This document shows, piece after piece, positions 1,530-27,065 of a stretch of DNA of 45,572 bases. Made by a program: the position numbers and the translations under genes. Positions within the stretch are counted from its first letter, which is position 1; every line of letters begins with the position of its first letter. The DNA lies in IMG/VR virus record IMGVR_UViG_3300025941_000041, positions 1-45,572 of that record, one strand, 5' to 3'. Under the pieces are notes generated by a model. The model was given only the letters and a program-made list of their open reading frames with translations. It made no database searches and had not been told where the DNA came from. The DNA comes from a virus.

Positions 1530-1575
1530 CCGGGTAGCTGTCCTCCTGTTCTTGATCGCAGGGACAGCTACCCGG
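1530..1575. terminator. Inverted repeat between convergent genes (bidirectional terminator, or recombinase-related site)
   Basis: CCGGGTAGCTGTCC at 1530-1543 pairs perfectly with its complement at 1562-1575 around an 18-base loop. The right arm contains the stop codon of the recombinase. There is no long T-run, so a bidirectional terminator is likely but not certain. Because it abuts the serine recombinase gene it could also be part of an attachment site, although those usually have shorter imperfect dyads. Confidence 0.55.
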
Positions 1576-3073: not shown

Positions 3074-3186
3074 CGTTACTGCCACAATTACACCGGGGGA
3101 ACATAGAGACTGACGATGAGCAATCGAGGGCATTATGAAGCAAGCAGACCCCGCGTGGGCTACCGTCGTGGAGGAACTCCGTCGCC

Positions 3187-3838: not shown

Positions 3839-4060
3839 ATGGCGAAAAATGCAAACTTCATCCGTCTGTGGGAGCAGGTCCACGGCCCCCGCCGTGAGTT
3901 CATCCGCGACTACCGCAAGCGGGGCGAGACCCGCCGATCCGCCGCTCGCCGGGCCGGCGTTGACCATCAGACACTCGCCGGCTGGGAAGACGAGCTGGGC
4001 CTGGTCCTGGAGCCCCGCTTCGCTGACGAGATGCTTGAATTATCGGCAAGCAAGGGCTGA
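3839..4060 (+). CDS. Small helix-turn-helix protein (Cro-like position), 73 aa
   Basis: The ATG is preceded by GGAGGG ten bases upstream and by a strong promoter, which decides this start over a longer upstream frame. The protein is basic at the N terminus (RREFIRDYRKRGETRRSA), followed by a helix-turn-helix-like stretch ARRAGVDHQTLAGWEDELGL. It is divergent from the putative repressor, the position of a Cro-type antirepressor or early regulator. The fold is seen; the role is inferred. Confidence 0.7.
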   Translation: MAKNANFIRLWEQVHGPRREFIRDYRKRGETRRSAARRAGVDHQTLAGWEDELGLVLEPRFADEMLELSASKG

Positions 4061-4075
4061 ACACGGAGGGTTCAC

Positions 4076-4225
4076 ATGGAAAAGACGGAGGTCCCTGACC
4101 TCTCGGAGATGGCCCGCCTGGTCCTGCCCGAGCTGCGCCGAATTCTCAAGGAGAGACACGATGAGCGGGAGGCCACAGAACACAATCGAAAAGATCCTCT
4201 CCCGAATAGAGAAGATCCCAGATAG
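4076..4225 (+). CDS. Short protein truncated by the HNH gene, 49 aa
   Basis: The ATG has a clear GGAGGG site. The first 30 residues (MEKTEVPDLSEMARLVLPEL and on to RRILKERHDE) look like a normal helical small protein, but the frame then runs 65 bases into the HNH gene and ends in a low-quality tail (HNRKDPLPNREDPR). I infer a resident gene whose 3' part was replaced or cut by insertion of the endonuclease gene. Confidence 0.45.
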   Translation: MEKTEVPDLSEMARLVLPELRRILKERHDEREATEHNRKDPLPNREDPR

Positions 4226-4592
4226 CTGTTGGATCTGGACTGGAGGCGTTCACCCCTGCGGCTATGGGACGGTTGGCTACCTGGGGAGAAATCACTATGT
4301 TCACCGGCTGGTTTACGAACAGCTCGTATGGCCGGTAGGCGAAGGGCTTGAACTGGATCACCTGTGTCGGAACAAAGTCTGCTGCAATCCCCTGCACCTG
4401 GAAGAAGTGACCCACGCGGAAAACTGCCGCAGAGGAAATGCAGGGCTCTACATGCGGGTCAAAACGCACTGTGTCCGAGGGCACTCCTTTAATGAAGGAA
4501 ACACCCGATGGCACCAGGGCTTTCGACGCTGCCGAAAGTGTGCGATTATCGCTACCCGCCACTACAGAGCGAGGAAGAAAGCCAATGCCTGA
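4161..4592 (+). CDS. HNH endonuclease, 143 aa
   Basis: The HNH_3-type core is clear: WIWTGGVHPCGYGTVGY, then VHRLVYEQL, then ELDHLCRNKVCCNPLHLEEV and THAENCRRG. A C-terminal zinc module follows (KTHCVRGHSF, NTRWHQGFRRCRKC). Enzymes of this type nick or cut double-stranded DNA and often act as free-standing homing endonucleases. The ATG follows AAGGAGAG. The gene overlaps a probably truncated upstream gene, consistent with mobility. Its zinc module is repeated twice in the larger endonuclease at 28063-28830, so the two are relatives. Confidence 0.88.
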   Translation: MSGRPQNTIEKILSRIEKIPDSCWIWTGGVHPCGYGTVGYLGRNHYVHRLVYEQLVWPVGEGLELDHLCRNKVCCNPLHLEEVTHAENCRRGNAGLYMRVKTHCVRGHSFNEGNTRWHQGFRRCRKCAIIATRHYRARKKANA

Positions 4593-12008: not shown

Positions 12009-12179
12009 ATGCGAAAGCAAGAGATCAAGGAGCAGTGCCCTCTTTGTCTCGGAACCGGCGACGTGAGCAATATGCAGCACCTTGGCGTGTTGGGCCGCAC
12101 CTGTCCACGCTGCGACGGAAGGGGGTGGCTGCCTGCCGCAGCGCCGACCGCCCCGCCTGGCGGGCAGGAGGAGGGTTAG
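12009..12179 (+). CDS. DnaJ-type zinc-finger micro-protein, 56 aa
   Basis: ATG after AGGAGGAG. Two CxxCxGxG motifs, CPLCLGTG and CPRCDGRG, are the signature of the DnaJ central cysteine-rich domain (half a domain, one zinc). No J domain is present, so it is not a chaperone by itself; it may bind unfolded or partner protein, or nucleic acid. The tail APPGGQEEG comes from the repeated module. The stop overlaps the convergent peptidase stop by four bases. Confidence 0.7.
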   Translation: MRKQEIKEQCPLCLGTGDVSNMQHLGVLGRTCPRCDGRGWLPAAAPTAPPGGQEEG

Positions 12180-12646
12180 GACTTCTTGCGTGGTGCAAGG
12201 GAGCAGTGCAAGTGGGTCGTATGGTCTACCGTCGAGCTATTGAAACGCGTTCGGGGAGGACCGAAGAGGATCGCTGCCCACGGCTTCCCCTCCCCGACGT
12301 GGAACCCTCCCGCCAGCAGATACTCCACCACCCGCAAGGCGTCCTTGTTCGTTAACATTGCCTGGTTGGCCGAGGGGTCCGTGATCGGGGTTATCTTGTT
12401 GATGTCAGCCGCCCTCCCCGTGTAGTGCCGTGAGTTCTTCGCGTGGTTCCCCGTGTCTACGCTGATCACGTTCAACCAGAGCTTCAGCTCATCCGCCACG
12501 ATCTTCAGCACCGCCCAGAGGTTCTGGTCCACGCCCCGGATTGGCGCGTTGGTCACGGTGATCCGGCCGACGTTCTCGTAGAGTTCGCCGGCCTGATCTT
12601 TGTGGACCAGCGTCCCGCTGGCGCGGAGGTAGTCGCTGATCGGCAT
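12176..12646 (-). CDS. M15-type peptidase, putative endolysin, 156 aa
   Basis: The zinc-peptidase signature is visible: SRHYTGRAADI (H74, D81) and DHTTHLHCSL (final histidines at 142-147), as in D-Ala-D-Ala carboxypeptidase/L-Ala-D-Glu peptidase families. These cut stem peptides of peptidoglycan. There is no signal peptide, so export through a holin pore is likely. It is the last gene of a leftward block of membrane proteins, where an endolysin is expected. A second copy of the same fold sits inside the ejection protein at 19284-21908. Confidence 0.8.
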   Translation of the reverse strand: MPISDYLRASGTLVHKDQAGELYENVGRITVTNAPIRGVDQNLWAVLKIVADELKLWLNVISVDTGNHAKNSRHYTGRAADINKITPITDPSANQAMLTNKDALRVVEYLLAGGFHVGEGKPWAAILFGPPRTRFNSSTVDHTTHLHCSLAPRKKS

Positions 12647-12834
12647 TAGAGGTCCGTGACTTCGATGTGCTTTCGGATCGGCCCCACCTTCACATCGAAG
12701 CCGCCTTCGCCTTTCAGGATCAGGTCAATGACCTTCTGCACCACGGGGCCATACTTGATGATGTCCCCGAGCGATAGGCCCTGAAGCGGACCCGCGCCCT
12801 GCGTCTCTTCAATCTCGATCTCTTCAGTCTTCAT
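12646..12834 (-). CDS. Small hypothetical protein, 62 aa
   Basis: ATG after AAGGAG; the stop overlaps the peptidase start (TAATG). An acidic N terminus (KTEEIEIEETQG) is followed by an amphipathic stretch (LSLGDIIKYGPVVQKVIDLI). No confident membrane span. It could be a lysis accessory by position; unproven. Confidence 0.6.
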   Translation of the reverse strand: MKTEEIEIEETQGAGPLQGLSLGDIIKYGPVVQKVIDLILKGEGGFDVKVGPIRKHIEVTDL

Positions 12835-12843: not shown

Positions 12844-13473
12844 TTACTTTCCCACGAACCGGAACGCCAGCCCGATCAACACGGACAGGATCGTTACCGC
12901 CAGCGCGATCAGTCCCACCGTCGCGCTCGATGACTGATGCTGCTCGACCTTCTGTGTAGCCTGTCCGATGGCAAGGGCTTCTATCCGCGTGATCCGGTCC
13001 TTCAGATCGCCAATCTGTGTCTGGTTGGCGTCCGTAATAGTACGGATATTATGGGCCTGCTCGCCCATCATTTCTTTCGCTGCCTGGAGCGCCGCCGCCA
13101 CGGCGTCCTTGGCTGCCTGGTCCTGGTTATTGAACCGCTCGTCACGCTCCTCCAGCTGCTGCTGGATATGGGCGAACTGCTGCGCCTTCAAGGTTTGCAG
13201 TGCGACGATCCGCTGCTCCACGCTGATGAACTTCTCATCGGTCAACGCCCGGCTCGTCGTGATGGCCCGGTCCAAGGCCGTCGGCACCCGCACCAGATCC
13301 TCGGAGAACAGCCGCGTCGCCGTGTCAATGGCGTCGATCCGGGCCGTGAACGCCTTCACCACCCCTTCGATCTGGATGTTCAGCTTCTCTTCGAGGTTCT
13401 GGATTTCCCTCAAGAGAGCCGCCGTCGTCAATTCTGACGGGTCCGGCCGATAGCGTTCCTCCGGCGTGGTCAC
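12844..13473 (-). CDS. Coiled-coil protein with C-terminal membrane anchor, 209 aa
   Basis: GTG start with GAGGA upstream. Residues 15-175 are a long coiled coil (LEEKLNIQIEGVV, FAHIQQQLEERDERF), and residues 183-206 are one membrane helix (ATVGLIALAVTILSVLIGLAF). The tail-anchored topology places the coil in the cytoplasm or periplasm. Three such proteins lie in a row next to the M15 peptidase, so holin or spanin functions are the first guess. Confidence 0.65.
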   Translation of the reverse strand: MTTPEERYRPDPSELTTAALLREIQNLEEKLNIQIEGVVKAFTARIDAIDTATRLFSEDLVRVPTALDRAITTSRALTDEKFISVEQRIVALQTLKAQQFAHIQQQLEERDERFNNQDQAAKDAVAAALQAAKEMMGEQAHNIRTITDANQTQIGDLKDRITRIEALAIGQATQKVEQHQSSSATVGLIALAVTILSVLIGLAFRFVGK

Positions 13474-13475
13474 GA

Positions 13476-13796
13476 TCAGTCCTCGGGAGTGCGGGAGCGA
13501 AGCATCCGGCGCAACTGCCGCAGCTCCTGGGCCAATACTTCTTTCTCCTCCAGCACCATCATATACCGGGCCTCCAGGTCGGACAGATCGTCCTTGATCT
13601 CCTTCAGGGCGACCCGCAGCTTGCTCCTATCCTGGTCGGCAATGGCGATCTCCGCCCGGTTCCGATCCAGCTCCGCCTTGAAGTAGTCCACGCCGATCTG
13701 TGGAAACTTGGTGCGGTAGAACAGCACTGCCGCCGCCGTTGCAATGGCAACGACACCGGGCAGCCCGCCCAGGAAATTCCACAGATCCTCCGCCAC
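13476..13796 (-). CDS. N-terminally anchored coiled-coil protein, 106 aa
   Basis: The GTG at 13796 follows GAGGGA by about six bases, which selects it over a longer frame starting at 13856. One membrane helix lies near residues 9-28 (LPGVVAIATAAAVLFY), followed by a charged coiled coil (LRVALKEIKDDLSDLEARYM). This resembles Rz-type inner-membrane spanins in layout, though no lipoprotein partner is visible. Confidence 0.6.
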   Translation of the reverse strand: MAEDLWNFLGGLPGVVAIATAAAVLFYRTKFPQIGVDYFKAELDRNRAEIAIADQDRSKLRVALKEIKDDLSDLEARYMMVLEEKEVLAQELRQLRRMLRSRTPED

Positions 13797-13806: not shown

Positions 13807-14079
13807 TCACGAGTCTTCCCCGTTGATCCCCTGCCGGTGCTCACACAACCGGACACGGGCTATCGTTGCCTCCAGGTCCCGGCGCACGTCGAACATCTCC
13901 CGGCGGATGAACTCACTCCCGAGCGATGGCATCCTCTCCACCAGGGAGTGGATCTCCATACGCAAGAGGTGCAGCTTGTACCAGATCACGCCGCCCAGGA
14001 GGAAGATCAGCCCCAGGCTCCACATCGCGTTCGGCCACGAGAAGGCGGTGATCACCGGCACCTGCGGCACGGCTGGCAT
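13807..14079 (-). CDS. Membrane protein with helical tail, 90 aa
   Basis: ATG overlapping the stop of the papain-like gene (ATGA). One membrane span at about residues 17-36 (MWSLGLIFLLGGVIWY), then a charged helix (HLLRMEIHSLVERM). By size and position it is a holin or spanin candidate. No family is recognised. Confidence 0.6.
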   Translation of the reverse strand: MPAVPQVPVITAFSWPNAMWSLGLIFLLGGVIWYKLHLLRMEIHSLVERMPSLGSEFIRREMFDVRRDLEATIARVRLCEHRQGINGEDS

Positions 14080-15539
14080 CACTCGGGAACACTCTCGGTA
14101 TCGCTGCCCATATGACTGCCCAGCACGGCGGTAACGGTCACGAGCTGCCCGCTGGAGACACCCGAGAGCCGGCCCCGTACCAGCGCCCCGTTCACCATCA
14201 CCCGCAAGGGGTTCATCCCGCCCACGTTCCAGGTAAGATCGGCCAGCCCGTCCTCCGGCCCTGTTGCCGTTACCTCGGTATAGATAGACCTACCCGAGCG
14301 ATAGATCCGTAGAACTACCTGGATATCACCCGGCGTCGGCGGCTCCGGGGGCGTATCGCCCGAGCTGACGACGAGGTTCGGCCCAATCGCCTGCTCCGCC
14401 TCCACTCGCACCACCACCACGTCTACGCCTTCCGCCTGGGGCGCGGTGACGAACAGCGCGGTGTTCGAGCGGCTCTGAACCTGAAGCGCGTTGCCGTGCC
14501 AGGAGACGAACAGGTTCCCGCTGCCGGGACTGCCGAACCCCTGCCCGATCACCGTGAACGCCTGACCCGGCTTCACCGTGGAGGGATCGTAGCCCGTCAC
14601 CGAGAGCTTGCCGGGCGTTGGCGGCTCCGGGGGAGTCACGTCGTCGTAGACGGTGAGGTTCGTGATCCCCAGGTTGCCGGTGTAGCCGCCGCCAGAAGCC
14701 ACGAGAGACGTTCCCTGCCGCAGCGTGTCCATCCCCGAGCCCGTTGCGGTCGCGGTAATCACGTAGCGCTTGGAGACAGGGTTGGGTGGGTGGGGAGGGT
14801 CGGGCGGTGAAGGGGCCAGGTCGTCGTCTATGGCGTCCAGAATTGTGTTCGCGAACACGTAGCCGTTCTGATAATTGCTCTGCGTCAGGAAGCTGATCGG
14901 AACCCAGCCGAAGCCGTGCTGGCCCCAGCTATCGCCCCAGGAGTTCTTAATCAAAAAGGCGTCGGGCCGGTAGCCGACGATCATGACTTCGTGGTATGAG
15001 TTAGGCAGGATGCCGCCCGAGGACTCCCAGCCGAAGCTGGTGGGAAGCAACAGCGCCAGCCCGCAGATATGCCCGGCGGCGATGGCCGCCTTGATCGTGG
15101 ACTCCCACTCCTGGGGGCTGCCCTTCGGGGCGAAAGCGTAGCTGCCGATCTTGTAGCGTTTCGAGGAGTTGGCGAGCTTGGTCCCCGCGTCCTGGGCGAT
15201 CTTCAGCATATCGCCGGTGTAGCGCCCCTGGTTCGGGTCGCCCGTCTGGTTGTGCATCCCCATCGCGTCAAAGATCAGCAGCTCGCCCTTGCGCTCGATG
15301 TGCTCGTTGCCGGTCTGCTGCCCGGAGATAGCGTGCCACACGCAGCTTGGTGAGGCCCCTTGTGAGTAGGTGTACTGCATGTGCGGGGTGAGGTGCTCGT
15401 CCCGGTCGGGGTAGCCGGCGGCCAGCATCGCTCGAACGTCAGCCATACAGCCCATCAGGTAGTTTTTCGGATTATCCGGCTGCCAGATCGCGCCGGTTCC
15501 ATGCACCTCAAGCTGTTCCCGTGTGTCGTCTTTTGGCAT
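14079..15539 (-). CDS. Papain-like (C1-type) cysteine peptidase with C-terminal TIG/Ig-like domain, 486 aa
   Basis: All papain catalytic signatures are in order: Q60 and C66 in SQGASPSCVWHA, H183 in SYHEVMIVGY, N199 in LIKNSWGDSWGQHGFGWVPI. After the peptidase (to about residue 235) come a Pro-rich linker (APSPPDPPHPPNP), a beta-rich segment, a TIG domain (LSVTGYDPSTVKPGQAFTVI, GQGFGSPGSGNLFVSW) and a last beta domain. The PPEPPTPG linker occurs twice. No signal peptide is seen. The ATG at 15539 fits GGAGG better than the preceding ATG at 15542. Possible roles are cell-wall or surface-protein cleavage during lysis, or a virion-borne protease. A papain-TIG fusion is unusual for a phage. Confidence 0.85.
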   Translation of the reverse strand: MPKDDTREQLEVHGTGAIWQPDNPKNYLMGCMADVRAMLAAGYPDRDEHLTPHMQYTYSQGASPSCVWHAISGQQTGNEHIERKGELLIFDAMGMHNQTGDPNQGRYTGDMLKIAQDAGTKLANSSKRYKIGSYAFAPKGSPQEWESTIKAAIAAGHICGLALLLPTSFGWESSGGILPNSYHEVMIVGYRPDAFLIKNSWGDSWGQHGFGWVPISFLTQSNYQNGYVFANTILDAIDDDLAPSPPDPPHPPNPVSKRYVITATATGSGMDTLRQGTSLVASGGGYTGNLGITNLTVYDDVTPPEPPTPGKLSVTGYDPSTVKPGQAFTVIGQGFGSPGSGNLFVSWHGNALQVQSRSNTALFVTAPQAEGVDVVVVRVEAEQAIGPNLVVSSGDTPPEPPTPGDIQVVLRIYRSGRSIYTEVTATGPEDGLADLTWNVGGMNPLRVMVNGALVRGRLSGVSSGQLVTVTAVLGSHMGSDTESVPE

Positions 15540-15548
15540 CATACCTCC

Positions 15549-15583
15549 GAAAGAAAGGCGCGCCACGGTTACAGCGGCACGCC
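15549..15583 (-). terminator. Hairpin plus T-run in the leader of the papain-like gene
   Basis: Read leftward, GGCGTGCC and GGCGCGCC (15583-15576 and 15564-15557) pair with one G-T, followed by TTTCTTTC and then directly the GGAGGT ribosome site and ATG. This is either the end of readthrough from the virion operon or an attenuator controlling the lysis block. Confidence 0.6.
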
Positions 15584-15621
15584 TGAAGGAGGGACATAGA
15601 AAGGTTACACAGCCAGTTGGG

Positions 15622-15637: not shown

Positions 15638-15738
15638 CCGGAGTATTTTACACCCATAGCGGGTAATAATCAATCAGAGAAGGACTTTGCTGGTTGCTCG
15701 TCGAACAGTCAAGCATCCAACGTAAACCCTTGCATGTT

Positions 15739-15781: not shown

Positions 15782-16012
15782 ATGGCGATCTGCGTGCCGA
15801 CCTTGGGATTGGGGAGTGTGGCGGTCTACGGCTACTTTCAGCCGGAGAACGAGCCAGAGGTGAGGCTGGCGGTGATTGATCAGCGGCAGGTGAACCTGGG
15901 CTCGATGCCGGTGGCCCTGATGCCTGCCGATGCGATCCAGTTGGGGAGAGAGCTGATCAAGGAGGGGGAGCGGCTGACCCGGCCCGAGGACCGGGTGGTG
16001 CTGGGCTATTAG
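15782..16012 (+). CDS. Lone rightward hypothetical protein, 76 aa
   Basis: ATG after AGGAGAG, choosing this start over a longer upstream frame. The sequence (GLGSVAVYGYFQPENEPEVR, LAVIDQRQVNLGSM) is beta-rich, then a helix (PADAIQLGRELIKEGERLT). It is the only rightward gene inside the long leftward region and has its own leader, so it may be expressed separately, for example from the prophage. No family is recognised. Its stop overlaps the convergent gene. Confidence 0.6.
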   Translation: MAICVPTLGLGSVAVYGYFQPENEPEVRLAVIDQRQVNLGSMPVALMPADAIQLGRELIKEGERLTRPEDRVVLGY

Positions 16013-16146
16013 CCGATGGAGAAGAAGCGGCAGAGGCCCTCCGACCAGCCGGGCATCACCTGAAACAGGATGACCAGCAGGGCCGGCAAGATCCAGACGG
16101 CCGCGAACAGTAGCGCCTTGTAAGTAAGACTGACCTCTTCTTCCAT
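16009..16146 (-). CDS. Single-span membrane protein, 45 aa
   Basis: Translates as MEEEVSLTYKALLFAAVWIL and continues through a hydrophobic stretch ending near residue 30, then QVMPGWSEGLCRFFSIG. The start overlaps the stop of the large ejection protein as ATGA. The acidic N terminus and one membrane helix fit a small holin-like or membrane accessory protein. Not previously named. Confidence 0.6.
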   Translation of the reverse strand: MEEEVSLTYKALLFAAVWILPALLVILFQVMPGWSEGLCRFFSIG

Positions 16147-19100
16147 CACTCTCCCCCCTGCCCTGATAGGGCGATCAGCATGTCGGCGTCCAGCGCCTGA
16201 CCGGCCGTCTTCTGATACCGGGCCTGCAGCGCCATCATCCAGTCAGCGAGATGCCGGATCGTCGCCTTCGTCTTGAAGTCTCCCGGCTTCCCCTCGCCCC
16301 CGGTGACGTAGTTCCTCACCTTGGCCGCCGCGTTCTTGAACTGGCTGGCGATCTGCTGCGGATCGGTCGGGAAATAGTGCTCGGGGAACTGTTCCGGTGT
16401 CGTGTCCCCTCGCAGCACCGCGCCCATATACTCAGCGAGATACCGCTGGTTCTCCGAGCGGCGGATGATATTATTGGTTCCCCGCTGCGTTCTCTCCAGC
16501 GGCGTCTCCGGCGTTACAATTCTCGTGCCAGTCATCGCCCCCAAGAGCGCCTGTGCCAGCCCTTCCGGCTCCCCTGACGCCCCGCCGTAGCGCGTCTCTC
16601 CGGCCGCTGCCCGGCCCACGCGGGCAAACTCCCGGCCCACCAGCGAGGGCGCTGTCCCCTGATAGGCGAACTTCAGTCGCTGAAGGATCGCATCAAGCGG
16701 CGGCAGTTCCCCCGGCTTCACGATCTCCCCTTCGCCGGTCGTCTCCGCCTTGTAGGGGTCGTAGTTCGTTGCCGCGGCAATGAGCGGGGCGAAGACACCG
16801 CCCGAGAACGGATTGTTCAGGGACGGGTTCAGCGCCGTGAACGGGCTCTGGCTGAACAACTGACCTGTAAGGTATCGCGGCCGACCATACTCATCCTTCA
16901 GCCCCGGCACCGGGAAGCGAAGCTGGTCGGTGGGATTGGGCGTCACCGCGTCTCGAACCTCCGCTTCCGGCCCCGCCACCGCGCCGGCCAACTGCCGCAG
17001 CCGGTAGCCGGAGTGGCGCAGGATGATGTCCGGGTTCTTCAACAGGATCGACAGTGAGTTCTCCAGGCCCTTCAGCCGGGTAGAGAGGAACGGCACGGCT
17101 CCATACTTGTTCAGCGCCGCTACCCGGCCGTCCACGTCGGTATGGTCGAACAGCGCCTTGTCGGTGATCCGGGCCGCCTCATCCTCAGCTATCCCACTCT
17201 TCACCAGTTTCTTGTAGAGGCTGTATTTGAACACTTCCTCTACCTTGCCGAACCACTTCACGGGCGACTCCACGACGTATCTGGCCTTCTTGCCGATCCG
17301 CTCTGCCGTGGTGTCAATCCCGATGGAGTTCCGCAGGGAGCCACCCACCTCGCCGAGTTGTCCGCTCTCCCCGGTGAACGCCCGGCTGCGCTGCGCCAGC
17401 CCTTCAAAGAACGGGTCGCTGCCGGGGTTCTGGAGTGCCCGCTTGAACGCCTTCAGGTCAGGGAGCAGGTCGAGGATCGGGTTCCAGTGGATACCCCTGG
17501 CCGCGGCCGAGCCCTCGGCCAGCGCGATGTTCTGTTTGATGTTCCCTTCCTGCACCGCCGGGTTGTAGGAGGCCCAGCCCGCCTTCACCTTCCCGGCCCA
17601 ACCCTGCAATAGCTTCTGCTCCGGGGTCAGCTCCGTCACCTTCGCCGCCTGCTGGATCACGTCGTCGGCGACCGGGTGGAACCAGCCCTCTGGAACGCCA
17701 TACGCCCGCTTCACCCATCCCGGTTTGGGCGTCTGACTGAACAGTTCCGGGTTCCGTTTGATCTGGTCGAGCGCCTGGAACCGCGCTCCCGCTCGGGCCT
17801 GCCGGGGCAGCGCCGCGCCCAGCGTCACGCCCGCCTGATACTCCCGGCCCAGCACGTCTGCCGTCGCAGCATTCGTCACCTTCCGGCCTTTGGCCGCGGC
17901 GTAGCCCCCGCCGCGGGTCTTCTTCATCACCCGCATCGCCAGGTCTTCAGCTCTGGGATCAATCGCACCCATCGAGCGAGCCGCTTCCACCGCTGCCTCG
18001 ATGTCGTTCGGGTTATGGCTCGCCAGGTGATACAGCCGCGCCGCGTACTGGTCGCCGTAGTGGGCCACCGTCCCCTTCTTGAGGTAGCCCACCTGCTCCA
18101 ACCAGTGCCCCGTCTTCTTGTAGACGCGGGACACGTCCCCGGCAATCGAGCGCAGGTCGTTCACGTCCAGGCCGATCTTCGCGGCTTCGGCTTCCACCTG
18201 CGGGCGGCCGGCATACTTCGCGCCCTTCGTCCCCGCCTCGATCCAGTGCGTCACCAATTCGTCCGCCGCGTTCACCCGCCGCCCGTCCGCTGTGGTCGTG
18301 GCGAAGTCCACCCCCCGCTTCCGGTAGCCGTCGTAGATGCCTTCCACCTTCTTCAGGAGCTGATCGCCCTCGCGGCGGATCTGACCGCCCACGGCCGCGC
18401 CCTTCACATACGCCTGCTTCACCGTCTGCCGCAGTTGGTTCGCGGCGCGGATCTCGTTCACGGTGGAGCCGTGCAGCCGCCGCCCCGCTACGAACTCCCC
18501 AACGCGCATCGCTGTCTCGGGGATCGCCGCGTCGAACAGCCCCATCGCCTGTGCGCCGCGCATTGAGAGCTTGCCCACAAACCCCAGCGTCCCACCCATC
18601 AGCTTCGCCGCAGCAGCGTCAGAACCGAAGGTCGAAAGGGCGAACTCGCCCACAGACCGGGCGTTCCTGTCAAACTCGGGAGGGATCCCCGGCAGGTCTA
18701 TTCCTCCCGGTCGCCCCGGTCGCTGGTAGCCCTCCGGGTGCAGGAAGCGTTGCTTCACCCCGTGCGGGTTCACGAACCCCCGACCCGCCTCGGCAACCGC
18801 GTGCGGGAGGCTCTTTCCCGCCGCCGCCAGCGGTCCCAGGTAAGGCCCCAGGTTCGGGTCTCGCTCCCCCGCCATTGCCGCGTCCGAGACGGTGTTCAGG
18901 AACGCCGTCATCGCATCGAACGGCGCGGAGATGACCTTCATTCCGGTGTTCAGCACGCGCCCCGAAGTCTCCAGCGCCTTCTCCAGCGGGCGGGTGTCCA
19001 ACGGCTGCGGCGCGTTCTCCTGGGCCGCGCCCGCGAACATCTCCTGCCCGGTGGTCGGGTCAATGACGTGGCCGTGCGCGCCCAGTGGTAAGCCGTGGGG

Positions 19101-19283
19101 AGAAGTGGTCGGTGGTGGTGGTGGCGGGCCTTGCAACTGAACAGGCGCGGGAGCGGGCAGGGCGGGTGCCTGCTGCTGCAAATCGTCCAGAATGGCGCGT
19201 GACTGCGGTGTGACGGGAGTTCCTACGCCACCGCGCAGCTCGTCGAGGATCTTCTTCGCGCTCGGACTGATCGGGGTCGGCAT
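16146..19283 (-). CDS. Large internal virion/ejection protein, 1045 aa
   Basis: This is the largest gene of the window, last of three consecutive large genes after the tail genes, like the internal core proteins of T7-type phages. The N terminus has a Pro-rich linker (residues about 47-60, six prolines in a row), then long helical stretches. A conserved-looking region near residues 565-770 (NPAVQEGNIKQNIALAEGSA, PVKWFGKVEEVFKYSLYKKL) resembles parts of large phage polyproteins. No catalytic motif was found. Its start follows the upstream stop with a weak ribosome site, implying translational coupling. Confidence 0.7.
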   Translation of the reverse strand: MPTPISPSAKKILDELRGGVGTPVTPQSRAILDDLQQQAPALPAPAPVQLQGPPPPPPTTSPHGLPLGAHGHVIDPTTGQEMFAGAAQENAPQPLDTRPLEKALETSGRVLNTGMKVISAPFDAMTAFLNTVSDAAMAGERDPNLGPYLGPLAAAGKSLPHAVAEAGRGFVNPHGVKQRFLHPEGYQRPGRPGGIDLPGIPPEFDRNARSVGEFALSTFGSDAAAAKLMGGTLGFVGKLSMRGAQAMGLFDAAIPETAMRVGEFVAGRRLHGSTVNEIRAANQLRQTVKQAYVKGAAVGGQIRREGDQLLKKVEGIYDGYRKRGVDFATTTADGRRVNAADELVTHWIEAGTKGAKYAGRPQVEAEAAKIGLDVNDLRSIAGDVSRVYKKTGHWLEQVGYLKKGTVAHYGDQYAARLYHLASHNPNDIEAAVEAARSMGAIDPRAEDLAMRVMKKTRGGGYAAAKGRKVTNAATADVLGREYQAGVTLGAALPRQARAGARFQALDQIKRNPELFSQTPKPGWVKRAYGVPEGWFHPVADDVIQQAAKVTELTPEQKLLQGWAGKVKAGWASYNPAVQEGNIKQNIALAEGSAAARGIHWNPILDLLPDLKAFKRALQNPGSDPFFEGLAQRSRAFTGESGQLGEVGGSLRNSIGIDTTAERIGKKARYVVESPVKWFGKVEEVFKYSLYKKLVKSGIAEDEAARITDKALFDHTDVDGRVAALNKYGAVPFLSTRLKGLENSLSILLKNPDIILRHSGYRLRQLAGAVAGPEAEVRDAVTPNPTDQLRFPVPGLKDEYGRPRYLTGQLFSQSPFTALNPSLNNPFSGGVFAPLIAAATNYDPYKAETTGEGEIVKPGELPPLDAILQRLKFAYQGTAPSLVGREFARVGRAAAGETRYGGASGEPEGLAQALLGAMTGTRIVTPETPLERTQRGTNNIIRRSENQRYLAEYMGAVLRGDTTPEQFPEHYFPTDPQQIASQFKNAAAKVRNYVTGGEGKPGDFKTKATIRHLADWMMALQARYQKTAGQALDADMLIALSGQGGE

Positions 19284-21908
19284 CTAGCGACCCGTCCCTC
19301 GATATTCCACCGTGCCCGGCCCCGGCGTCTGATTGATCCCGATGCGCGGGTTGCCCGGCCCACCCGTCTTCGGAACCCGTAGCCGCAACGATTTACCCGG
19401 CGCGTTGGCGAAGCTCTCCAGCGCCACCTTCAACTGCTGCTGCGCCTCCGCTTGCGTCAGGCTGTAGGGCGGTCGCCGCAGCCGGTCTTCCTGCGCGAAA
19501 TACCACTTCGAGGCGTTCAGCACCTGATCCACCGTCGTGTAGCCCATCCGCTTCGCCCACGGCGCGAACACCTCGTTCCACCCGATCAGTTGCTCGTTTC
19601 CTTTCAGCTCCGGCAGGTCGTAGATGGAGCGCGGGTCCGCCCGGTGGATCTGCACCTCGTCCTGCCCGGTGCGGCCCAGGTGCTCGCGGAAAGTTCGCAC
19701 CAGCGCGTCCATCGCTGTCCCCGGCTTTGGGGACAACAACCCCTTCACGCCTCCCTCGTCGAAGTTCTGCCGCACTCCCTGGCCCGCCTCGAACCCCGCC
19801 GAGACCGGGTTCATACTCGCTATCTGGGCGCCCGCGCTGGAGGGTGGCGCCTTCGTCGCCGGCCCCATACTCTGCGGGCTCCTGACCGGCGGGGGCGGCG
19901 TGATCGTTACGTCTCGGCCTGGACCCGCCTTCTCCTTGGGAGTGAGGTTGACTCCTCCTCTGGCGTTCAGTGGGTTGGGCTCCCGGTGGAATTGCCGTGT
20001 GCCTCGGGGCGATGTCTTCTCCGTAATCGTTACCTGCCCTCCCGGCTCGGTCTTGGGCAGATCCACGGCAGGCGTCGGCGTCCCACCAAATCCCACGTTC
20101 GCCTCCGGCGCCGGGCTGGTCGTCACCGCCGGCACCCCACCACCCACGTTCGGGTAGCCCTGCCCCGACAGGTCCGGTGGGTTCGGCACCTGGGCACCGA
20201 GGCGTGAGGGAGCCGGAACGCCCGGCATCAGGTTCCCCTGCGTGATCTGGTTCGCCGCCGCGATGACCGCCGCTACCTTGCCCTCGTCAGGCGTGCCCGC
20301 GAACCGCCGCTGCAATTCCTCGGCCGGCACCTGCTGCTTGCCGTTGGCGCCCGTGTAGAGGTCCCAGACGGTGGACTCCAGGCTCTCCGGGTGCGAGGCC
20401 CACGGGTTGATCGCCTTCGGTGCCGAGGCGGGCGTGTTCACCCCGCTGGCGTTCAGCCCGGCGTCGGGTGCCAGGATACCCGCGACCTGTTCCGCGGTCA
20501 TCCCCGGCAGCGCGGCGGGTGGTCCCTGCTGGCCCCATTCGAGATGAATGTGCGCACCGTCCCACACCCGCTGCCCCTTCGGACGCACCCGCTCATCCCT
20601 CACGGTGTAGCCCGCCGCCGACGCCGCCCGCATGAAGTCTTTCACCTCTTGCGGTGTCTTGTTCTTCACTCCCACGTCAATGGCGCGGCCCCGGTAGTGA
20701 GGGCTGCCCGTGTTGTGCCCCCCGTGCGTGCCATCGGGCCGCAGCCCGGTGGGGTTGGGCGTCATCACGAACCCCTGGCTGGTGGTGAACTGCTGCGCTC
20801 CCGCCAGCGCCGGGTTCGCTGCTCCGCCCACCGCCGGCAGCACTGGAGGCCCGCCCGCCACCGCTCGCATCGCCGCTGCTCCCCGGTTATCCAGGGGGAT
20901 ATTGTTAGCCGGGGCGTTCGGGTTTTCGGTCCCGATGCCCCCACCGGGAGGAGCCAGCCCCAGCGCGCCGCCACCCGCCCTGACGTTCGCACCGCCCAGA
21001 ACCCTGCCGATCTCATCCTGGTTAAGCCCCTGCTGCTGCAGGTAGAGAGTGATCGCTGCCGGGTTCGGGGCCTGCGCCCCGCCCATCTCCTTGTTAAAAA
21101 GCAAGGGCACCAGGTACTTCGACGCATCGCCGCCGCGCACCGAGACGTGGGCTGCCGCGTCAATCAGCTCCTTCCAGATCCCCGCCTGATACGCCGCATC
21201 TTTTTGCCCCATGTTCAGGCGGAGCAGAGCGGCGTCTGTCTTGTTCTTGAAATCGGCTTGAGCAACTCTCAGGTTCTGCTCTCGCTGCTGGAGGCCGAAC
21301 TGATCGTGGACGTTCTGCGTGTCAGCGCGGATCTTGGCGACCAACTCCGGCGTCATTGCCTCCAGTCGGTTCGTCTGCGCGTAGATATTTCCGGTCTGGG
21401 CCGTCTCTTTCTCCGAAGGGCTGTATTGAAAACCAGGCACGATGGAAGGATGCAGGAAATTGAAACGAGTGGCATCCACCGGAGCTGGGCGAGGGCCAAA
21501 GCCGACCGGAATATCAGCAGGCTGACCAAAGGCGCCAAGCTGCCCCGAAACATCGGTGCCCTTTGGCTGCGTCACGATGGAGAACGCTCTCGTTGCCGCC
21601 TGTGGACCGCCGAGTGCGTAAGCCTGCTCCACCTGCCGCGCACTCTCCGCGTGGCCTGATGCTTCCCAATCGTTGATCGCCTGATGGTTGCCGCTGGCGT
21701 AGATCGCCTTGTTCGTGTCCAAGAGGCTCTTGACGGGGTAGGGCACGTCCTCTTTCACGGCGTGACCGTGGACCGTGGCGAGCTTCGCGTTCAGCAGTTC
21801 GTCCGTCTTGTAGCGGTTGTATGCCTCCTGCTCACCCTGCCGCTGGCCCAGGCCAAAGCCCTGCGCCGCTGGACCCAGCGCCCTGCCTACTCCCGAAAAG
21901 AAACCCAT
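19284..21908 (-). CDS. Internal virion protein with embedded M15-type peptidase domain, 874 aa
   Basis: N-terminal 300 residues are helical (RYKTDELLNAKLATVHGHAV). Around residues 375-460 a zinc-peptidase core appears: NTGSPHYRGRAIDVGV (H404, D411) and WDGAHIHLEW (H453, H455), the SxHxxGxAxD/HxH pattern of M15 D-Ala-D-Ala peptidases. The rest is Pro/Gly-rich low complexity and a helical C terminus. By analogy with T7 gp16, whose lytic domain opens the wall during DNA ejection, this protein may digest peptidoglycan at infection. Clear AGGAGG site at the start. Confidence 0.75.
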   Translation of the reverse strand: MGFFSGVGRALGPAAQGFGLGQRQGEQEAYNRYKTDELLNAKLATVHGHAVKEDVPYPVKSLLDTNKAIYASGNHQAINDWEASGHAESARQVEQAYALGGPQAATRAFSIVTQPKGTDVSGQLGAFGQPADIPVGFGPRPAPVDATRFNFLHPSIVPGFQYSPSEKETAQTGNIYAQTNRLEAMTPELVAKIRADTQNVHDQFGLQQREQNLRVAQADFKNKTDAALLRLNMGQKDAAYQAGIWKELIDAAAHVSVRGGDASKYLVPLLFNKEMGGAQAPNPAAITLYLQQQGLNQDEIGRVLGGANVRAGGGALGLAPPGGGIGTENPNAPANNIPLDNRGAAAMRAVAGGPPVLPAVGGAANPALAGAQQFTTSQGFVMTPNPTGLRPDGTHGGHNTGSPHYRGRAIDVGVKNKTPQEVKDFMRAASAAGYTVRDERVRPKGQRVWDGAHIHLEWGQQGPPAALPGMTAEQVAGILAPDAGLNASGVNTPASAPKAINPWASHPESLESTVWDLYTGANGKQQVPAEELQRRFAGTPDEGKVAAVIAAANQITQGNLMPGVPAPSRLGAQVPNPPDLSGQGYPNVGGGVPAVTTSPAPEANVGFGGTPTPAVDLPKTEPGGQVTITEKTSPRGTRQFHREPNPLNARGGVNLTPKEKAGPGRDVTITPPPPVRSPQSMGPATKAPPSSAGAQIASMNPVSAGFEAGQGVRQNFDEGGVKGLLSPKPGTAMDALVRTFREHLGRTGQDEVQIHRADPRSIYDLPELKGNEQLIGWNEVFAPWAKRMGYTTVDQVLNASKWYFAQEDRLRRPPYSLTQAEAQQQLKVALESFANAPGKSLRLRVPKTGGPGNPRIGINQTPGPGTVEYRGTGR

Positions 21909-21917
21909 GGTGTCCTC

Positions 21918-22778
21918 CTAGAAGTAGCGGACCTCTCCGTTAGGATCTATGTAGTAGTCGGAGCCATACTGTCCGGTAGGCATCCCGCCGTTATGGTAGC
22001 CCGTCGCCCCCGCTCCGTAGCCGCCGCCCGTCATTCCGCCCAGGACGCCGGTACTGGCGGTCCCGCCGTAGCCACCGGCCGGGTTCACCCCGTACTGGTT
22101 CATGTAGTTCTGGAGCGCCCGCTGCTGCTCCCAGTTCTGCACGATGCCTCCGAGTCCCGCGAACGCCTGGTTCGCCTGCTGCCCGTAAGCCCCGGCCTGC
22201 TGTCCGTAACCGGCTGATGCCGCGCCACCCTGGCCGAAGCCCATCCCGATCCCACCCGCCAACTGCGCCAGCGCCTGCTGCTGATGCTCGGGAGCCTGGA
22301 TCGCCAACTGCCTGCGGAACTGACCATACTGCTGCTGCCCCAAGGCGGCGTTTCGCCCCAATGCCGCCCCAATCGAAGCATCCGCCAATCCCCGCTGCCC
22401 GAGCTGGAACCGGAGCGCGTTGGCGCCCTGCATCTGGTGGCGGTTGATGTCTTCCTGCGCGGCCTGGAGGCGAAGCTGATCCTCGTAGCTGCCGTAGCCG
22501 CCACCCAGGCCAAATTGCTGGGAGCGGTTCTGGAGGCCGAACTGTCCCGGCCCCTGTTGGGTGACACCGGCACTCGGCCCGAGCCCCGCGTTCGCGGCGA
22601 GCTGGTTCAGATACTGACCATACACCGGCTGCGCGGTGGCGTAGGTCTGCATCTGGCGCTGGATCAACTGCGCCTGCCGACGCATCGCCTCTTTCTGACT
22701 ATTGGCAGCGCTTCTGCCTGTTACGAAGTTGCCAATGACGCCGGCAGCGCCTATCGCATCATCTACTCCGAAAGCCAT
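21918..22778 (-). CDS. Gln/Gly-rich internal virion protein, 286 aa
   Basis: An N-terminal amphipathic/hydrophobic segment (DDAIGAAGVIGNFVTG) is followed by helical Gln-rich regions (QAQLIQRQMQTYATAQPVYG) and a Gly/Tyr-rich tail. Size, composition and position first in the trio match T7 gp14-like ejection proteins. AAGGAA precedes the ATG by six bases. There is no sequence-level proof of homology. Confidence 0.6.
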   Translation of the reverse strand: MAFGVDDAIGAAGVIGNFVTGRSAANSQKEAMRRQAQLIQRQMQTYATAQPVYGQYLNQLAANAGLGPSAGVTQQGPGQFGLQNRSQQFGLGGGYGSYEDQLRLQAAQEDINRHQMQGANALRFQLGQRGLADASIGAALGRNAALGQQQYGQFRRQLAIQAPEHQQQALAQLAGGIGMGFGQGGAASAGYGQQAGAYGQQANQAFAGLGGIVQNWEQQRALQNYMNQYGVNPAGGYGGTASTGVLGGMTGGGYGAGATGYHNGGMPTGQYGSDYYIDPNGEVRYF

Positions 22779-23424: not shown

Positions 23425-24576
23425 CTATACGTCGGCTGTTAGCCGAATGACATTCGCACCCGTCCGCAGGAGCGCCGTTTTCCCCGCGGCGATGGCGATA
23501 CCCGTACCCGCCGCTGTCTTGACCGTCACCGCGAAACCGCCCGTCGTGTTGTTGAACACTGTATAGAAGCCGCCGGTCGTCGCCGGGGCGATCACGTTTC
23601 GGGCTGCGGTCAATGCCCCGGAGAGGATCAGGTGCCCCGTCGCCATCTCCCCCGCCGACAGGGTGGTGTCAGCGCCGTCAGTCACCGTCACGGTCGAAGT
23701 GCCCAGTGAGATCGCCCCGCCATTGCCGCGGACACCCGCCGAGAGCAGCGCCTGGTTCGCGTTCAGATCCCCGCCGTTCAGTGAGAGCGGGGTTGCCCCC
23801 GAGGCGGACGCCATCAGCCCCAGGTTGATGATCGCCGTCCTGAGGTCCACCGTCTGCGCCTGCTGCGCCAGCGGCGTGGCGTTGTAGAAGCCCAGCTTCT
23901 GCGTCGTCGCCGTTCCGATCTTAGTGCCTGTGGTCGCCCCCAACACGACGTTTACCGCGTCCAGCAAGGTCAGCGGTCCCGTCGGCCCGATCCTGACCAG
24001 CAGGTTGTCCGAAACGTCTCGGGCCTGGAAGAGGTCCGCCGTCTGCGCCGTCACGCCCCGCACCACGAAGCCTCGCGTGCCCGAGTCCGGCGTGTTGACT
24101 TCCAGCTTCGCCAGAGTGGGCGCCGCGCCCACTCCGAAGGCGGCCGGGGTCCAGTTCTTGTTACCCCACTGCGAGGTGCCGTCGTTGTAGACGAGGAAAT
24201 CGCCGCCCGCCACCGCCGAGATCGTCACGTCCGAGAGATCGTCGAGGGCGATCAAATTCCCAATCGGTGTGTTCACGAACAGCGAGCCGTTGTGCCGCAG
24301 GATGTGCCCGGTGGTCGGCGCCGACACGCTCACGTCGGTGAGATCGTCGAGAGAGAGGTAGGTCCGCTTATCCTGCGGCGCCCAGCCGGTGGCGGTAAAG
24401 ACAAGCAGCTCGCCCACCACCGCGTTCGGCAGATCCGGAGAACCCTCCACCTTGTTCGCGGTCAGATCCAGCAGCGCCTTATAGGTGCGCCGGTCGGTGG
24501 CATTCTGGTTGCCGAGCTGGAAATCTACTGGTCTGCCCGGTATGATTTGGCTGGGATCTACCGCCCTTCTATTCAT
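23425..24576 (-). CDS. Tail fibre-like protein, 383 aa
   Basis: ATG overlapping the nozzle gene stop (ATGA), which decides the start. The middle has fibre-type beta repeats (NLIALDDLSDVTISAVAGGD, YLSLDDLTDVSVSAPTTGHI are two copies of one motif) and a GTKIGTATTQKLGFYNATP segment of a kind seen in many phage fibres. The C terminus is Gly/Thr/Ala-rich. It probably decorates the tail near the nozzle. Confidence 0.65.
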   Translation of the reverse strand: MNRRAVDPSQIIPGRPVDFQLGNQNATDRRTYKALLDLTANKVEGSPDLPNAVVGELLVFTATGWAPQDKRTYLSLDDLTDVSVSAPTTGHILRHNGSLFVNTPIGNLIALDDLSDVTISAVAGGDFLVYNDGTSQWGNKNWTPAAFGVGAAPTLAKLEVNTPDSGTRGFVVRGVTAQTADLFQARDVSDNLLVRIGPTGPLTLLDAVNVVLGATTGTKIGTATTQKLGFYNATPLAQQAQTVDLRTAIINLGLMASASGATPLSLNGGDLNANQALLSAGVRGNGGAISLGTSTVTVTDGADTTLSAGEMATGHLILSGALTAARNVIAPATTGGFYTVFNNTTGGFAVTVKTAAGTGIAIAAGKTALLRTGANVIRLTADV

Positions 24577-27065
24577 TGCGCCACCGACCAGTGAAGTCCG
24601 GCGGCCAGCAGCTCCAGCTCCGTGGCCGTGGTCGAGCAACTCCAATCGAGCCGGAAGTGCTCGCTCCGCGCCTGCTCCACCGTGCTCTCGAACAGCCGCG
24701 CCACCGTCTCGTTCGGGTCATCCACCAGCGCCAGGTTGTGCGTCACCGTCTGCACCGTCGCCCCCGTCCCCTTCTTGAGGGTGACTGTTGCGGTTCCGGT
24801 ACCCTTCTTCGCCTTGATCTCGATGTAGTGGGCTCGTTTCTCACGGCCCGCCAGACCACAGTCCCAGTCCCGACTGACCCATCGGGCAGCAATTGCGGTA
24901 GCGGCGGCGGGGCTAGCGTCCGTTGCTCCCACTTCCAGTTGGTATACGCGGGCGTGTCCTTCGAGTGCGGCATAGATCCTCTGCTTGTTCCCGCTGACGT
25001 AGGTCGTCACGGTGCTGTCGTGCCACAGCCAGTTCGTGTTCGTCGTCCAGACGCCATACTGGAGATCGAACACAATAGAGCCGGTGCTCCAACAGAGATA
25101 GTAACGTTCTTCCCAAACAAACGCATGTGACCCTGCCATCTCGGCCGCGGTCATCGCCTCGATGGTGCCGCGCTGGTCGTCCGAGATGCGCTGCGTCTGC
25201 CGCCCGTCCCACTGGTAGACCCCATCCGGCCCCAGCCACAAGAGGAGGCTCTTGACGGAGACGATGGTGCGATGGCTGACGCAGCCGTGATCACAGAACT
25301 TGGTCAGCAAAAACGAGTTCGGGTCCACGCCCTGCAGGAGGTGCCCCGCGCCGCCCGTGAACACCGCCACCACCGCGCCGTGCGAGCACAGACCCGTGAT
25401 CTCACCCGCGGCCCGCCCCTGCAGTTTCGCTCGGGTGCCCTGGTTCGGGTCGTCCAGATCCGGGGAGGCGGGGGAGTAGTAGGGCTGCGAGACGTTCGAG
25501 ATATAGACCGTCTGCGGATCAGCAGCGTTGCCCGCGCCGATCAGGCGGTTCTGGTGCTCGATCAGGTATTTGGCGGGCGGGAAGCGGGTGTTGAAGTCCA
25601 CCATGATCTCGTTGCCGCTGATGTCGCCGATGGTGTCGTTGAACGAGGCCGTGCCAATCGGCAGGGTCGTCACCTTCTGATAGACGGTAGACTCCGGGTT
25701 CAGCCGCCAGATTGTGATGGCGGTCACGTCGTCCAATGCTGAGTTCGGCAGCGATCCCACGAACACATCGCGGGTATTGGGCTGGAAGAGGGTCGAGACG
25801 GTCTTCGCGTCGGAGGGCTCACCGTAGACGCCATCCACGTTCACGAAGCTGACCTTGTAGCTGAACTCGCCGTGGCCCATCGAACCCGCGCCCGCGTCCG
25901 CCAGGGTGAAGGTGTTCGGCGCCTTGTCCACCATCGCCGTGGCTGCCGCCTTCACGAAGTCCACGCCCTGCGCGGTGGTCGGCGTGTTCACCGCCGTCAG
26001 GTCATTGGCGGAAGCCGTCACACTGTCCGTATAGGTAGCGCCCAGGTTCCAATAGTCAATCAGCGCGACCTTCTCCGCTGCCGAGAGCATCGAGTAATTC
26101 TTGCCCGCGCCGCTGTTGTAGAGCGAGGTGCGCAGGCCAGCGGTGAGCACGCCACCGCCCGAGGCCGCTGACTTCCAGAACCCGGCCCGCTCGATCCGCC
26201 CGTCCATAAAGGTGGTGCCCGTCTCAAGCCGCCCGATGTTGAAGTCCACGGTGTTGGCGGTGATGCCGTTCGAGTAAGCGGTCGAGACCACCGCGCCGTT
26301 GTTCACCTGGATGTTCACCGTGTTGGCTACGCTGTCGTGCCAGCCGACCACGTAATACCAGGTGCCCGTGGCGACGGCGATAGCGGAGAGCGCGTCGGCA
26401 AAGAACGGCCCCGTGAAGTTCCAGACGGAGAACTCCAGCTTCGAGGCAGCGTTGTTATACCAGAGGCGGTATTCGCGCAAGGAAGATGTCGAGTTATCCC
26501 AGCGGGTGATGATCGGCCGGTCGGCCCCGAGGCTGTCGAAGTAGACCCAGGCGGCTACCGTGAAGTCAATGTCACCCGTCTGCAGGTTCGCGTTTGTGGC
26601 GTGAGTCAGTGCCTGGGAGCTTGCGGCGGTGAAGTGCGTGGCGAGGTCCGAGGTGCCCGACCCCCCGGAGTAGCGCGTATTCTGTGAGGTGCCGTCTCCA
26701 AGATAGACAACGCGCTCCACCCACGCTGCGTTCACGTCCGCTCCCGCCACGAACCGCGCCGAGCCGTTCGGCACCGTCGCGCCCACCGTGGCATCAAAGA
26801 AGTCCACCAGGTTCGTGTTGTGAACGCCCAGCAGGTGCTCGGTCGTGCCCACCTTGAACCATTCCAGCATCTGAAGGTTCTGGTCGGGAGAGAGGTTAGA
26901 GGAGCCTAATGCAGACGTGCCCTTACGGCGCACCAGCTTCTGGCGCGACTTGTAAAGGTTCTCCAGGGTGCTGGCCTGCGTCTCCGCTACCTCCATCGGC
27001 ACGTCATCATTCTCACCGAGGAAGTTCGAGACGCGCAGCGGCGAGGTGCCGCGAAATCTAGGCAT
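24573..27065 (-). CDS. Tail nozzle protein (T7 gp12-like position) with LamG/concanavalin-like insertion, 830 aa
   Basis: Both ends look like the beta-propeller nozzle of short-tailed phages (STLENLYKSRQKLVRRKG; ITGLCSHGAVVAVFTGGAGH; LLLWLGPDGVYQWDG). Between about residues 130 and 340 sits a separate jelly-roll module typical of LamG/concanavalin-A-like lectins: DIDFTVAAWVYFDS, WYYVVGWHDSVANTVNIQVN, FNIGRLETGTTFMDGRI. The module may bind surface glycans. It lies directly after the adaptor gene, the order expected in podoviruses. Confidence 0.72.
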   Translation of the reverse strand: MPRFRGTSPLRVSNFLGENDDVPMEVAETQASTLENLYKSRQKLVRRKGTSALGSSNLSPDQNLQMLEWFKVGTTEHLLGVHNTNLVDFFDATVGATVPNGSARFVAGADVNAAWVERVVYLGDGTSQNTRYSGGSGTSDLATHFTAASSQALTHATNANLQTGDIDFTVAAWVYFDSLGADRPIITRWDNSTSSLREYRLWYNNAASKLEFSVWNFTGPFFADALSAIAVATGTWYYVVGWHDSVANTVNIQVNNGAVVSTAYSNGITANTVDFNIGRLETGTTFMDGRIERAGFWKSAASGGGVLTAGLRTSLYNSGAGKNYSMLSAAEKVALIDYWNLGATYTDSVTASANDLTAVNTPTTAQGVDFVKAAATAMVDKAPNTFTLADAGAGSMGHGEFSYKVSFVNVDGVYGEPSDAKTVSTLFQPNTRDVFVGSLPNSALDDVTAITIWRLNPESTVYQKVTTLPIGTASFNDTIGDISGNEIMVDFNTRFPPAKYLIEHQNRLIGAGNAADPQTVYISNVSQPYYSPASPDLDDPNQGTRAKLQGRAAGEITGLCSHGAVVAVFTGGAGHLLQGVDPNSFLLTKFCDHGCVSHRTIVSVKSLLLWLGPDGVYQWDGRQTQRISDDQRGTIEAMTAAEMAGSHAFVWEERYYLCWSTGSIVFDLQYGVWTTNTNWLWHDSTVTTYVSGNKQRIYAALEGHARVYQLEVGATDASPAAATAIAARWVSRDWDCGLAGREKRAHYIEIKAKKGTGTATVTLKKGTGATVQTVTHNLALVDDPNETVARLFESTVEQARSEHFRLDWSCSTTATELELLAAGLHWSVAQ

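What the first reader, a model, noticed from the sequence alone, without database searches (positions are those of the whole stretch)
14079..15539. Papain-like peptidase fused to a TIG domain in the putative lysis block
The Gln, Cys, His and Asn signatures of papain are all present (Q60, C66, H183, N199), followed by twice-repeated PPEPPTPG linkers and an Ig-like TIG domain. Phage lysis proteins are normally glycosidases, amidases or zinc/CHAP peptidases; a C1-type papain with a TIG tail next to three membrane proteins and an M15 peptidase suggests either a new lysis factor or a protease acting on host surface proteins.
Basis: partly seen in the sequence, partly recalled or inferred. Interest (0 to 1): 0.68.

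Follow-up and report, generated by a model that had tools for sequence, protein, structure and literature searches.

The report
Papain-type protease in phage lysis cassette
A phage genome carries a real papain-family protease joined to an immunoglobulin-like tail next to its predicted cell-bursting genes, and the same kind of protease turns out to sit among the lysis genes of several unrelated cultured phages, where I found no test of its job.

Summary
Window 14079-15539, minus strand, encodes a 486-aa protein whose residues 1-240 are a C1A papain-type peptidase. Q60, C66, H183 and N199 are in register. A profile built without this protein finds it at 78 bits, E 6e-23. An alignment-based AlphaFold model matches xylellain (3ois) best. 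The tail has two PPEPPTPG linkers and one weak TIG domain. The gene overlaps a one-TM protein gene by 4 nt and precedes two more TM/coiled-coil proteins and an M15-motif peptidase.

C1A peptidases recur in phage lysis: beside LysA and holin genes in cultured Gordonia and Arthrobacter phages, after a GH25 lysozyme in a Thermoanaerobacterium phage, fused to M23, and inside an Alicyclobacillus 'endolysin'. Dyson et al. 2015 already listed one (GMA2 orf38) as a putative lysin. A tree indicates several recruitments. Many other viral C1A genes lie outside lysis blocks.

Best explanation: a cytoplasm-stored, holin-released accessory lysis protease that cuts a protein or peptide part of the envelope, held there by its Ig-like tail. 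Substrate and activity are untested. The TIG fusion was seen only here. New variant of a known but uncharacterised kind.

The parts
14079..15539 (-). C1A papain-type peptidase with proline-rich linkers, TIG-like domain and C-terminal beta domain, 486 aa
   Evidence: ATG with GGAGG at 15544-15548
14820..15539 (-). C1A peptidase domain, residues 1-240 (Q60, C66, H183, N199)
   Evidence: Pfam PF00112 over cut-off; profile without the window E 6e-23; model pLDDT about 90 over residues 61-170 and 181-220, Foldseek best hit xylellain 3ois
14778..14816 (-). first proline-rich linker APSPPDPPHPPNP (residues 242-254)
   Evidence: sequence; similar linkers follow the C1 domain in L122 and L061
14610..14633 (-). 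PPEPPTPG linker copy 1 (residues 303-310)
   Evidence: sequence
14406..14603 (-). IPT/TIG-like domain (residues 313-378)
   Evidence: 22.9 bits as a segment, 17.7 bits in the whole protein; fold model under pLDDT 50
14328..14351 (-). PPEPPTPG linker copy 2 (residues 397-404)
   Evidence: sequence
14082..14327 (-). C-terminal beta-strand domain, residues 405-486, no family match
   Evidence: no Pfam hit; strands in model at low confidence
15556..15584 (-). hairpin followed by TTCTTT directly 5' of the ribosome site; promoter-like hexamers at 15645-15673
   Evidence: consensus scan only
13807..14082 (-). 91-aa protein, one N-terminal TM and a charged helical tail; its GTG start overlaps the peptidase stop by 4 nt
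13476..13796 (-). 106-aa protein, N-terminal TM plus coiled coil (GTG start at 13796 proposed; the longer ORF starts at 13856)
12844..13473 (-). 209-aa coiled-coil protein with C-terminal TM
   Evidence: cc-TM proteins lie next to or near C1 in L059, L061, L068, L122 and THSA-485A
12646..12834 (-). 62-aa protein, no TM, no family
12176..12646 (-). M15-type metallopeptidase (probable endolysin), SRHYTGRAAD and HLH
   Evidence: an annotated D-Ala-D-Ala carboxypeptidase sits at the like position in podovirus MW202803
16009..16146 (-). 45-aa one-TM ORF directly after the 1045-aa protein, upstream of the peptidase

Best explanation
The protein is a xylellain-type C1A cysteine endopeptidase working as an accessory lysis enzyme. 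It has no signal peptide, so it most likely accumulates in the cytoplasm with the M15 endolysin and reaches the envelope when the adjacent membrane proteins (holin-like, with coiled-coil/TM partners that could act like spanins) fire. There the papain domain would cut a peptide or protein part of the envelope (peptidoglycan stem peptides, a protein tether between layers, or an S-layer or surface protein), while the proline linkers and Ig-like/TIG tail hold it on the wall or surface. Shown: fold family, catalytic residues, domain order, gene neighbours, 4-nt overlap with a membrane-protein gene, recurrence of C1A genes in lysis cassettes. Inferred: activity, timing, holin dependence, envelope substrate, binding role of the tail.
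For: C1A domain. Own neighbours: 4-nt overlap with a TM protein, two further TM/coiled-coil proteins, M15 motif. C1A in annotated lysis cassettes of cultured phages: Gordonia Sixama (LysA C39, LysA amidase, hp, C1, holin), GMA2, Aleemily (LysA x2, hp, C1, holin, membrane, LysB), Lilbeanie, Arthrobacter Mufasa8 (holin, M23, hp, holin, C1), Thermoanaerobacterium THSA-485A (GH25 then C1), probably Streptomyces ZL12. Fusions: C1-M23 followed by a holin-like gene (L059); C1 with Rv2525c glycosidase-like and PG_binding_1 domains, plus a sub-cut-off Big_1 Ig-like match, in the Alicyclobacillus MMB025 'endolysin'. Uncultured L122: cc-TM, C1, TM, GH25 endolysin, holin. In a 55-row tree the window falls with L058, THSA-485A and L059 (support 85/62), and lysis-context rows need 6 label changes against a shuffled mean of 12.6 (0 of 500 as low). 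Close kin inflate that figure.
Against: No holin family is recognised in the window; 'holin' rests on TM content only. Many viral C1A genes are not in lysis blocks (Shaeky and Sycamore among tRNAs, BillNye after terminase, Indlovu right arm). Across 54 viral C1 contigs neither coiled-coil/TM nor multi-TM genes are significantly enriched near C1 (p 0.17 and 0.14); the broader test of any small membrane protein gave odds 2.25, p 0.001. None of 38 contigs with related capsid proteins has a C1 gene, though most are fragments. The window's place in the tree is weakly supported (end branch 2.03). No functional test of any phage C1A lysis gene was found.
Confidence: 0.58

Rival explanations
1. Virion-associated surface protease or adhesin: the TIG/Ig-like tail binds the host surface and the papain domain clears a protein layer during entry. 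The gene sits where T7-like phages carry the tail fibre, between internal virion proteins and lysis genes.
For: It follows three large genes (16146-22778), one with a weak match to an ejection family, in a podovirus-like order. Ig-like domains are common on phage structural proteins (general knowledge). Some viral C1 proteins carry surface-binding tails: F5/8C in 2 of 45, SLH in 1 of 45.
Against: A tail-fibre candidate lies elsewhere (23425-24645). The gene overlaps a TM-protein gene by 4 nt and has its own promoter-like site and hairpin. Stand-alone lysis-cassette homologues are mostly 214-277 aa with little room for a binding tail.
Confidence: 0.2
2. Secreted or cytoplasmic effector (superinfection exclusion, anti-defence, or host takeover) that cleaves a host protein and happens to sit by the lysis genes of a temperate phage.
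For: The phage has a large serine integrase (1568-3262). Several actinophage C1 genes lie in moron-like places among tRNAs or HNH genes.
Against: Recurrent placement between lysin and holin genes in four Gordonia phages of different genome sizes, and next to a holin in an Arthrobacter phage, is not expected of a moron. Fusions to M23 and PG-binding domains point to the wall.
Confidence: 0.14
3. Structural maturation protease for phage proteins (capsid or ejection proteins).
For: It is a protease gene next to very large presumed virion proteins.
Against: No precedent found for C1A in head maturation; far from head genes; a TIG tail and TM neighbours are not expected.
Confidence: 0.03
4. A host-derived gene with no selected role, or an inactive remnant.
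For: Xylellain-type C1A genes are widespread in bacteria and archaea (PMC10380794); the window copy is very divergent (end branch 2.03).
Against: Intact 486-aa frame, third-position G+C 0.83 like its neighbours, all four catalytic residues kept despite 27% best identity.
Confidence: 0.05

Closest known systems
Xylellain (PDB 3ois), short bacterial C1A papain peptidase
   Same: Best solved structure by profile (E 4e-64 for the viral family profile, which includes the window) and by fold (E 3e-9); same catalytic order Q-C-H-N
   Different: Cellular enzyme without TIG tail; about 17% identity in the structural alignment
Gordonia phage GMA2 orf38 / Sixama gp109 lysis-cassette C1 peptidases
   Same: C1 peptidase in the lysis block beside lysins and holin; GMA2 orf38 published as putative lysin by cd02619 (PMC4524720)
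   Different: About 220-228 aa, no linker or Ig-like tail; on a different branch of the tree; siphoviruses
Thermoanaerobacterium phage THSA-485A peptidase C1A (Tsac_2838)
   Same: Directly after a GH25 lysozyme, in a block with a coiled-coil/TM protein; same weakly supported tree group as the window
   Different: 277 aa, no TIG domain; endolysin partner is GH25 rather than M15
Alicyclobacillus phage MMB025 'endolysin' (753 aa)
   Same: N-terminal C1 domain followed by an Ig-like segment (Big_1, below cut-off) and wall-directed domains
   Different: Also has a glycosidase-like domain and PG_binding_1; the window tail has no recognised wall-binding domain
Papain-fold (clan CA) endolysin peptidases of other families, e.g. 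C39-like OneUp gp43 and mycobacteriophage N5 domain
   Same: Same overall fold; used in endolysins (PMC3314691)
   Different: Different peptidase family: OneUp gp43 gives no match to the C1 profile

Membership tests
Peptidase family C1A (xylellain type) | Catalytic Cys, His, Asn and oxyanion-hole Gln in papain order | tested here: met
   Q60, C66, H183, N199; conserved columns in 92 sequences
Peptidase family C1A (xylellain type) | Papain fold | tested here: met
   AlphaFold with 92-row alignment, pLDDT about 90 over most of residues 61-220; Foldseek top hits xylellain, cathepsins, papain, probability 1.00. Active-site geometry was not measured
Peptidase family C1A (xylellain type) | Sequence profile above curated cut-off | tested here: met
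   PF00112 24.1 bits against 20.7; held-out viral profile 78 bits
Peptidase family C1A (xylellain type) | Proteolytic activity, E-64 sensitive | not testable with these tools
   needs protein
IPT/TIG domain | Pfam PF01833 above cut-off and Ig-like fold | tested here: inconclusive
   Below cut-off in whole protein (17.7), above as a segment (22.9); model under pLDDT 50
Phage lysis cassette component | Gene next to holin and endolysin | tested here: inconclusive
   TM neighbours and M15 motif present, but no holin family recognised
Phage lysis cassette component | Recurrence of the same enzyme type in recognised lysis cassettes | tested here: met
   Sixama, GMA2, Aleemily, Lilbeanie, Mufasa8, THSA-485A, L122
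Phage endolysin (peptidoglycan hydrolase) | Degrades peptidoglycan | not testable with these tools
   no assay; no known wall-binding domain in the tail
Phage tail fibre or virion protein | Matches virion protein families or found in particles | tested here: inconclusive

The most novel reading that the evidence does not exclude
C1A papain peptidases are a repeatedly recruited extra lysis function of tailed phages: true proteinases, distinct from CHAP, C39, NlpC, M15 and M23 lysins, that cut a protein component of the envelope at lysis. The window shows the most elaborate stand-alone form, with an Ig-like tail. A single clade of the lysis-context members is rejected (AU p 4e-5), with at least 4 label changes forced by supported branches.
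Probability: 0.35. Interest if true: 0.66.

Novelty: new variant of a known kind. Interest (0 to 1): 0.43.

Why it matters
Phage lysis is usually told as holin, endolysin and spanin (or LysB). A proteinase of the papain family kept between lysin and holin genes in unrelated phages suggests an envelope layer made of protein or peptide that endolysins alone do not clear. The substrate is unknown, and cultured phages carrying the gene already exist, so the question can be tested directly.

Tried and rejected
Single-sequence AlphaFold: useless, pLDDT 33. Close relatives of the whole protein in viral or genome contigs: none; of the 1045-aa upstream neighbour: none. My first C1 motif pattern was one base short in each gap and missed even the window; the corrected one found 51 contigs. 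'C1 genes in viruses always sit by lysis genes': rejected, contexts are mixed. 'Gordonia OneUp endolysin is a C1 relative' (Foldseek lead): rejected, it is C39-like. 'All lysis-cassette C1 genes form one clade': rejected. Host identification: not achieved; TerL, capsid and integrase relatives point to Paenibacillus, Myxococcus/Bradyrhizobium and Brevibacillus phages respectively. Conservation of C1 among capsid relatives: none in 38 contigs.

Full report
What is there. The finding gives no strand; the gene lies on the minus strand at 14079-15539. It begins at an ATG with GGAGG four bases upstream and encodes 486 residues. By single-sequence search the peptidase match rests on the His/Asn half only (Pfam PF00112, 24.1 bits, cut-off 20.7). 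I therefore collected viral C1 proteins with a corrected motif scan (51 contigs), aligned them, and searched the window with a profile that left it out: 78 bits, E 6e-23, no other window ORF and none of 500 shuffles. Across 92 aligned domains Q60, H183 and N199 are invariant and C66 is at least 90% conserved. With that alignment AlphaFold models most of residues 61-220 at about pLDDT 90, and Foldseek puts xylellain (3ois) first, then cathepsins and papain, all at probability 1.00. The catalytic geometry itself was not measured.

The tail. After residue 240 comes a proline-rich linker (242-254), a short beta segment, PPEPPTPG (303-310), a TIG-like domain (313-378), PPEPPTPG again (397-404) and a C-terminal beta domain without family match. 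TIG is 17.7 bits in the whole protein and 22.9 as a segment (cut-off 20.9), and the model there is poor, so I treat TIG as likely but not settled. Of 45 viral C1 proteins scanned, TIG appears only in this one; others carry F5/8C, SLH or M23 domains.

Surroundings. The contig is a temperate, podovirus-like genome: large serine integrase, Erf and primase/helicase on the left, then TerL, portal, capsid, internal virion proteins and a tail-fibre candidate on the minus strand. The peptidase lies after the last large gene of that series (16146-19283). Its stop overlaps by 4 nt the start of a 91-aa one-TM protein. A 106-aa TM/coiled-coil protein, a 209-aa coiled-coil protein with C-terminal TM, a 62-aa protein and an M15-motif peptidase follow. 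A related podovirus, MW202803, has an annotated D-Ala-D-Ala carboxypeptidase at the like position and no gene annotated as a C1 peptidase. A promoter-like site and a hairpin precede the peptidase gene (consensus only). No holin family is recognised, so 'lysis block' is an inference from TM content and the M15 gene.

Relatives. No close relative of the whole protein exists in the collections searched. With the fetched C1-bearing contigs the window shares almost nothing but the peptidase domain, and the contexts of those genes vary. Small membrane proteins are enriched within two genes of C1 (odds 2.25, p 0.001), but coiled-coil/TM and multi-TM genes taken separately are not. Particular cases are telling: L122 has cc-TM, C1, TM, GH25 endolysin, holin; L059 has a C1-M23 fusion followed by a holin-like gene. 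Searching from these proteins led to cultured phages. Sixama, GMA2, Aleemily and Lilbeanie (Gordonia) keep C1 between LysA and holin genes. Mufasa8 (Arthrobacter) has C1 directly after a holin, two genes from an M23 peptidase. THSA-485A has C1 directly after GH25 lysozyme. The MMB025 'endolysin' joins C1 with glycosidase-like and PG-binding domains and an Ig-like segment. Counter-examples exist: Shaeky, Sycamore, BillNye and Indlovu carry C1 outside lysis genes.

Tree. On 55 C1 domains the 14 lysis-context rows need 6 label changes (shuffled mean 12.6, none of 500 as low), with at least 4 forced by supported branches. One clade is rejected (AU p 4e-5). The window groups with L058, THSA-485A and L059, weakly (85/62). 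I assigned the labels, including the window and L058, before building the tree, and some rows are close kin, so the clustering figure is only suggestive.

Mechanism. The peptidase has no signal peptide and few cysteines, as expected of a cytoplasm-stored enzyme. I think it is released with the M15 endolysin when the adjacent membrane proteins act, and then cuts a peptide or protein part of the envelope while its Ig-like tail keeps it there. Release, timing, substrate and binding are inferred.

Known and new. Short xylellain-type C1A genes acquired by Myoviridae and Siphoviridae are published (PMC10380794), and GMA2 orf38 was called a putative lysin on its cd02619 motif (PMC4524720). Papain-fold peptidases of other families are known endolysin domains (PMC3314691). 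A 2025 survey of viral lytic proteins does not mention papain or cysteine in its main text (PMC12596118). I found no functional test of a phage C1A lysis gene in the papers searched, which are open-access only. The C1A-TIG fusion in a podovirus-like lysis block is a new variant; the recurrence of C1A in lysis cassettes is the more general lead.

Noticed in passing
window 9-46: Perfect 38-bp palindrome CAGCGCCAAGCCACTGCTGCAGCAGTGGCTTGGCGCTG at the very left end of the contig; could be an att or terminus feature, or an assembly-end artefact.
   Followed up: no
window 15782-16012 (+): A 76- or 77-aa ORF on the opposite strand with AGGAGAGAAA directly before its ATG lies between the 1045-aa gene and the peptidase; no family assigned.
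   Followed up: no
window 3849-4592 (+) and 28063-28875 (-): Two HNH endonucleases of the same family (phrog_826), the second inserted among the structural genes; probably homing-type.
   Followed up: no
L236, L237: Two other IMG/VR contigs carry an identical capsid protein (100% over 314 aa), so the virus or a near twin was recovered in other records.
   Followed up: partly
L058:16761-17303: A C92-like permuted papain-fold protein (below cut-off) lies just before the TM protein and C1 gene of the closest viral relative.
   Followed up: no
L316:28776-29381: Gordonia OneUp gp43 'endolysin' is a stand-alone C39-like peptidase beside a GH19-like LysA and a holin.
   Followed up: partly
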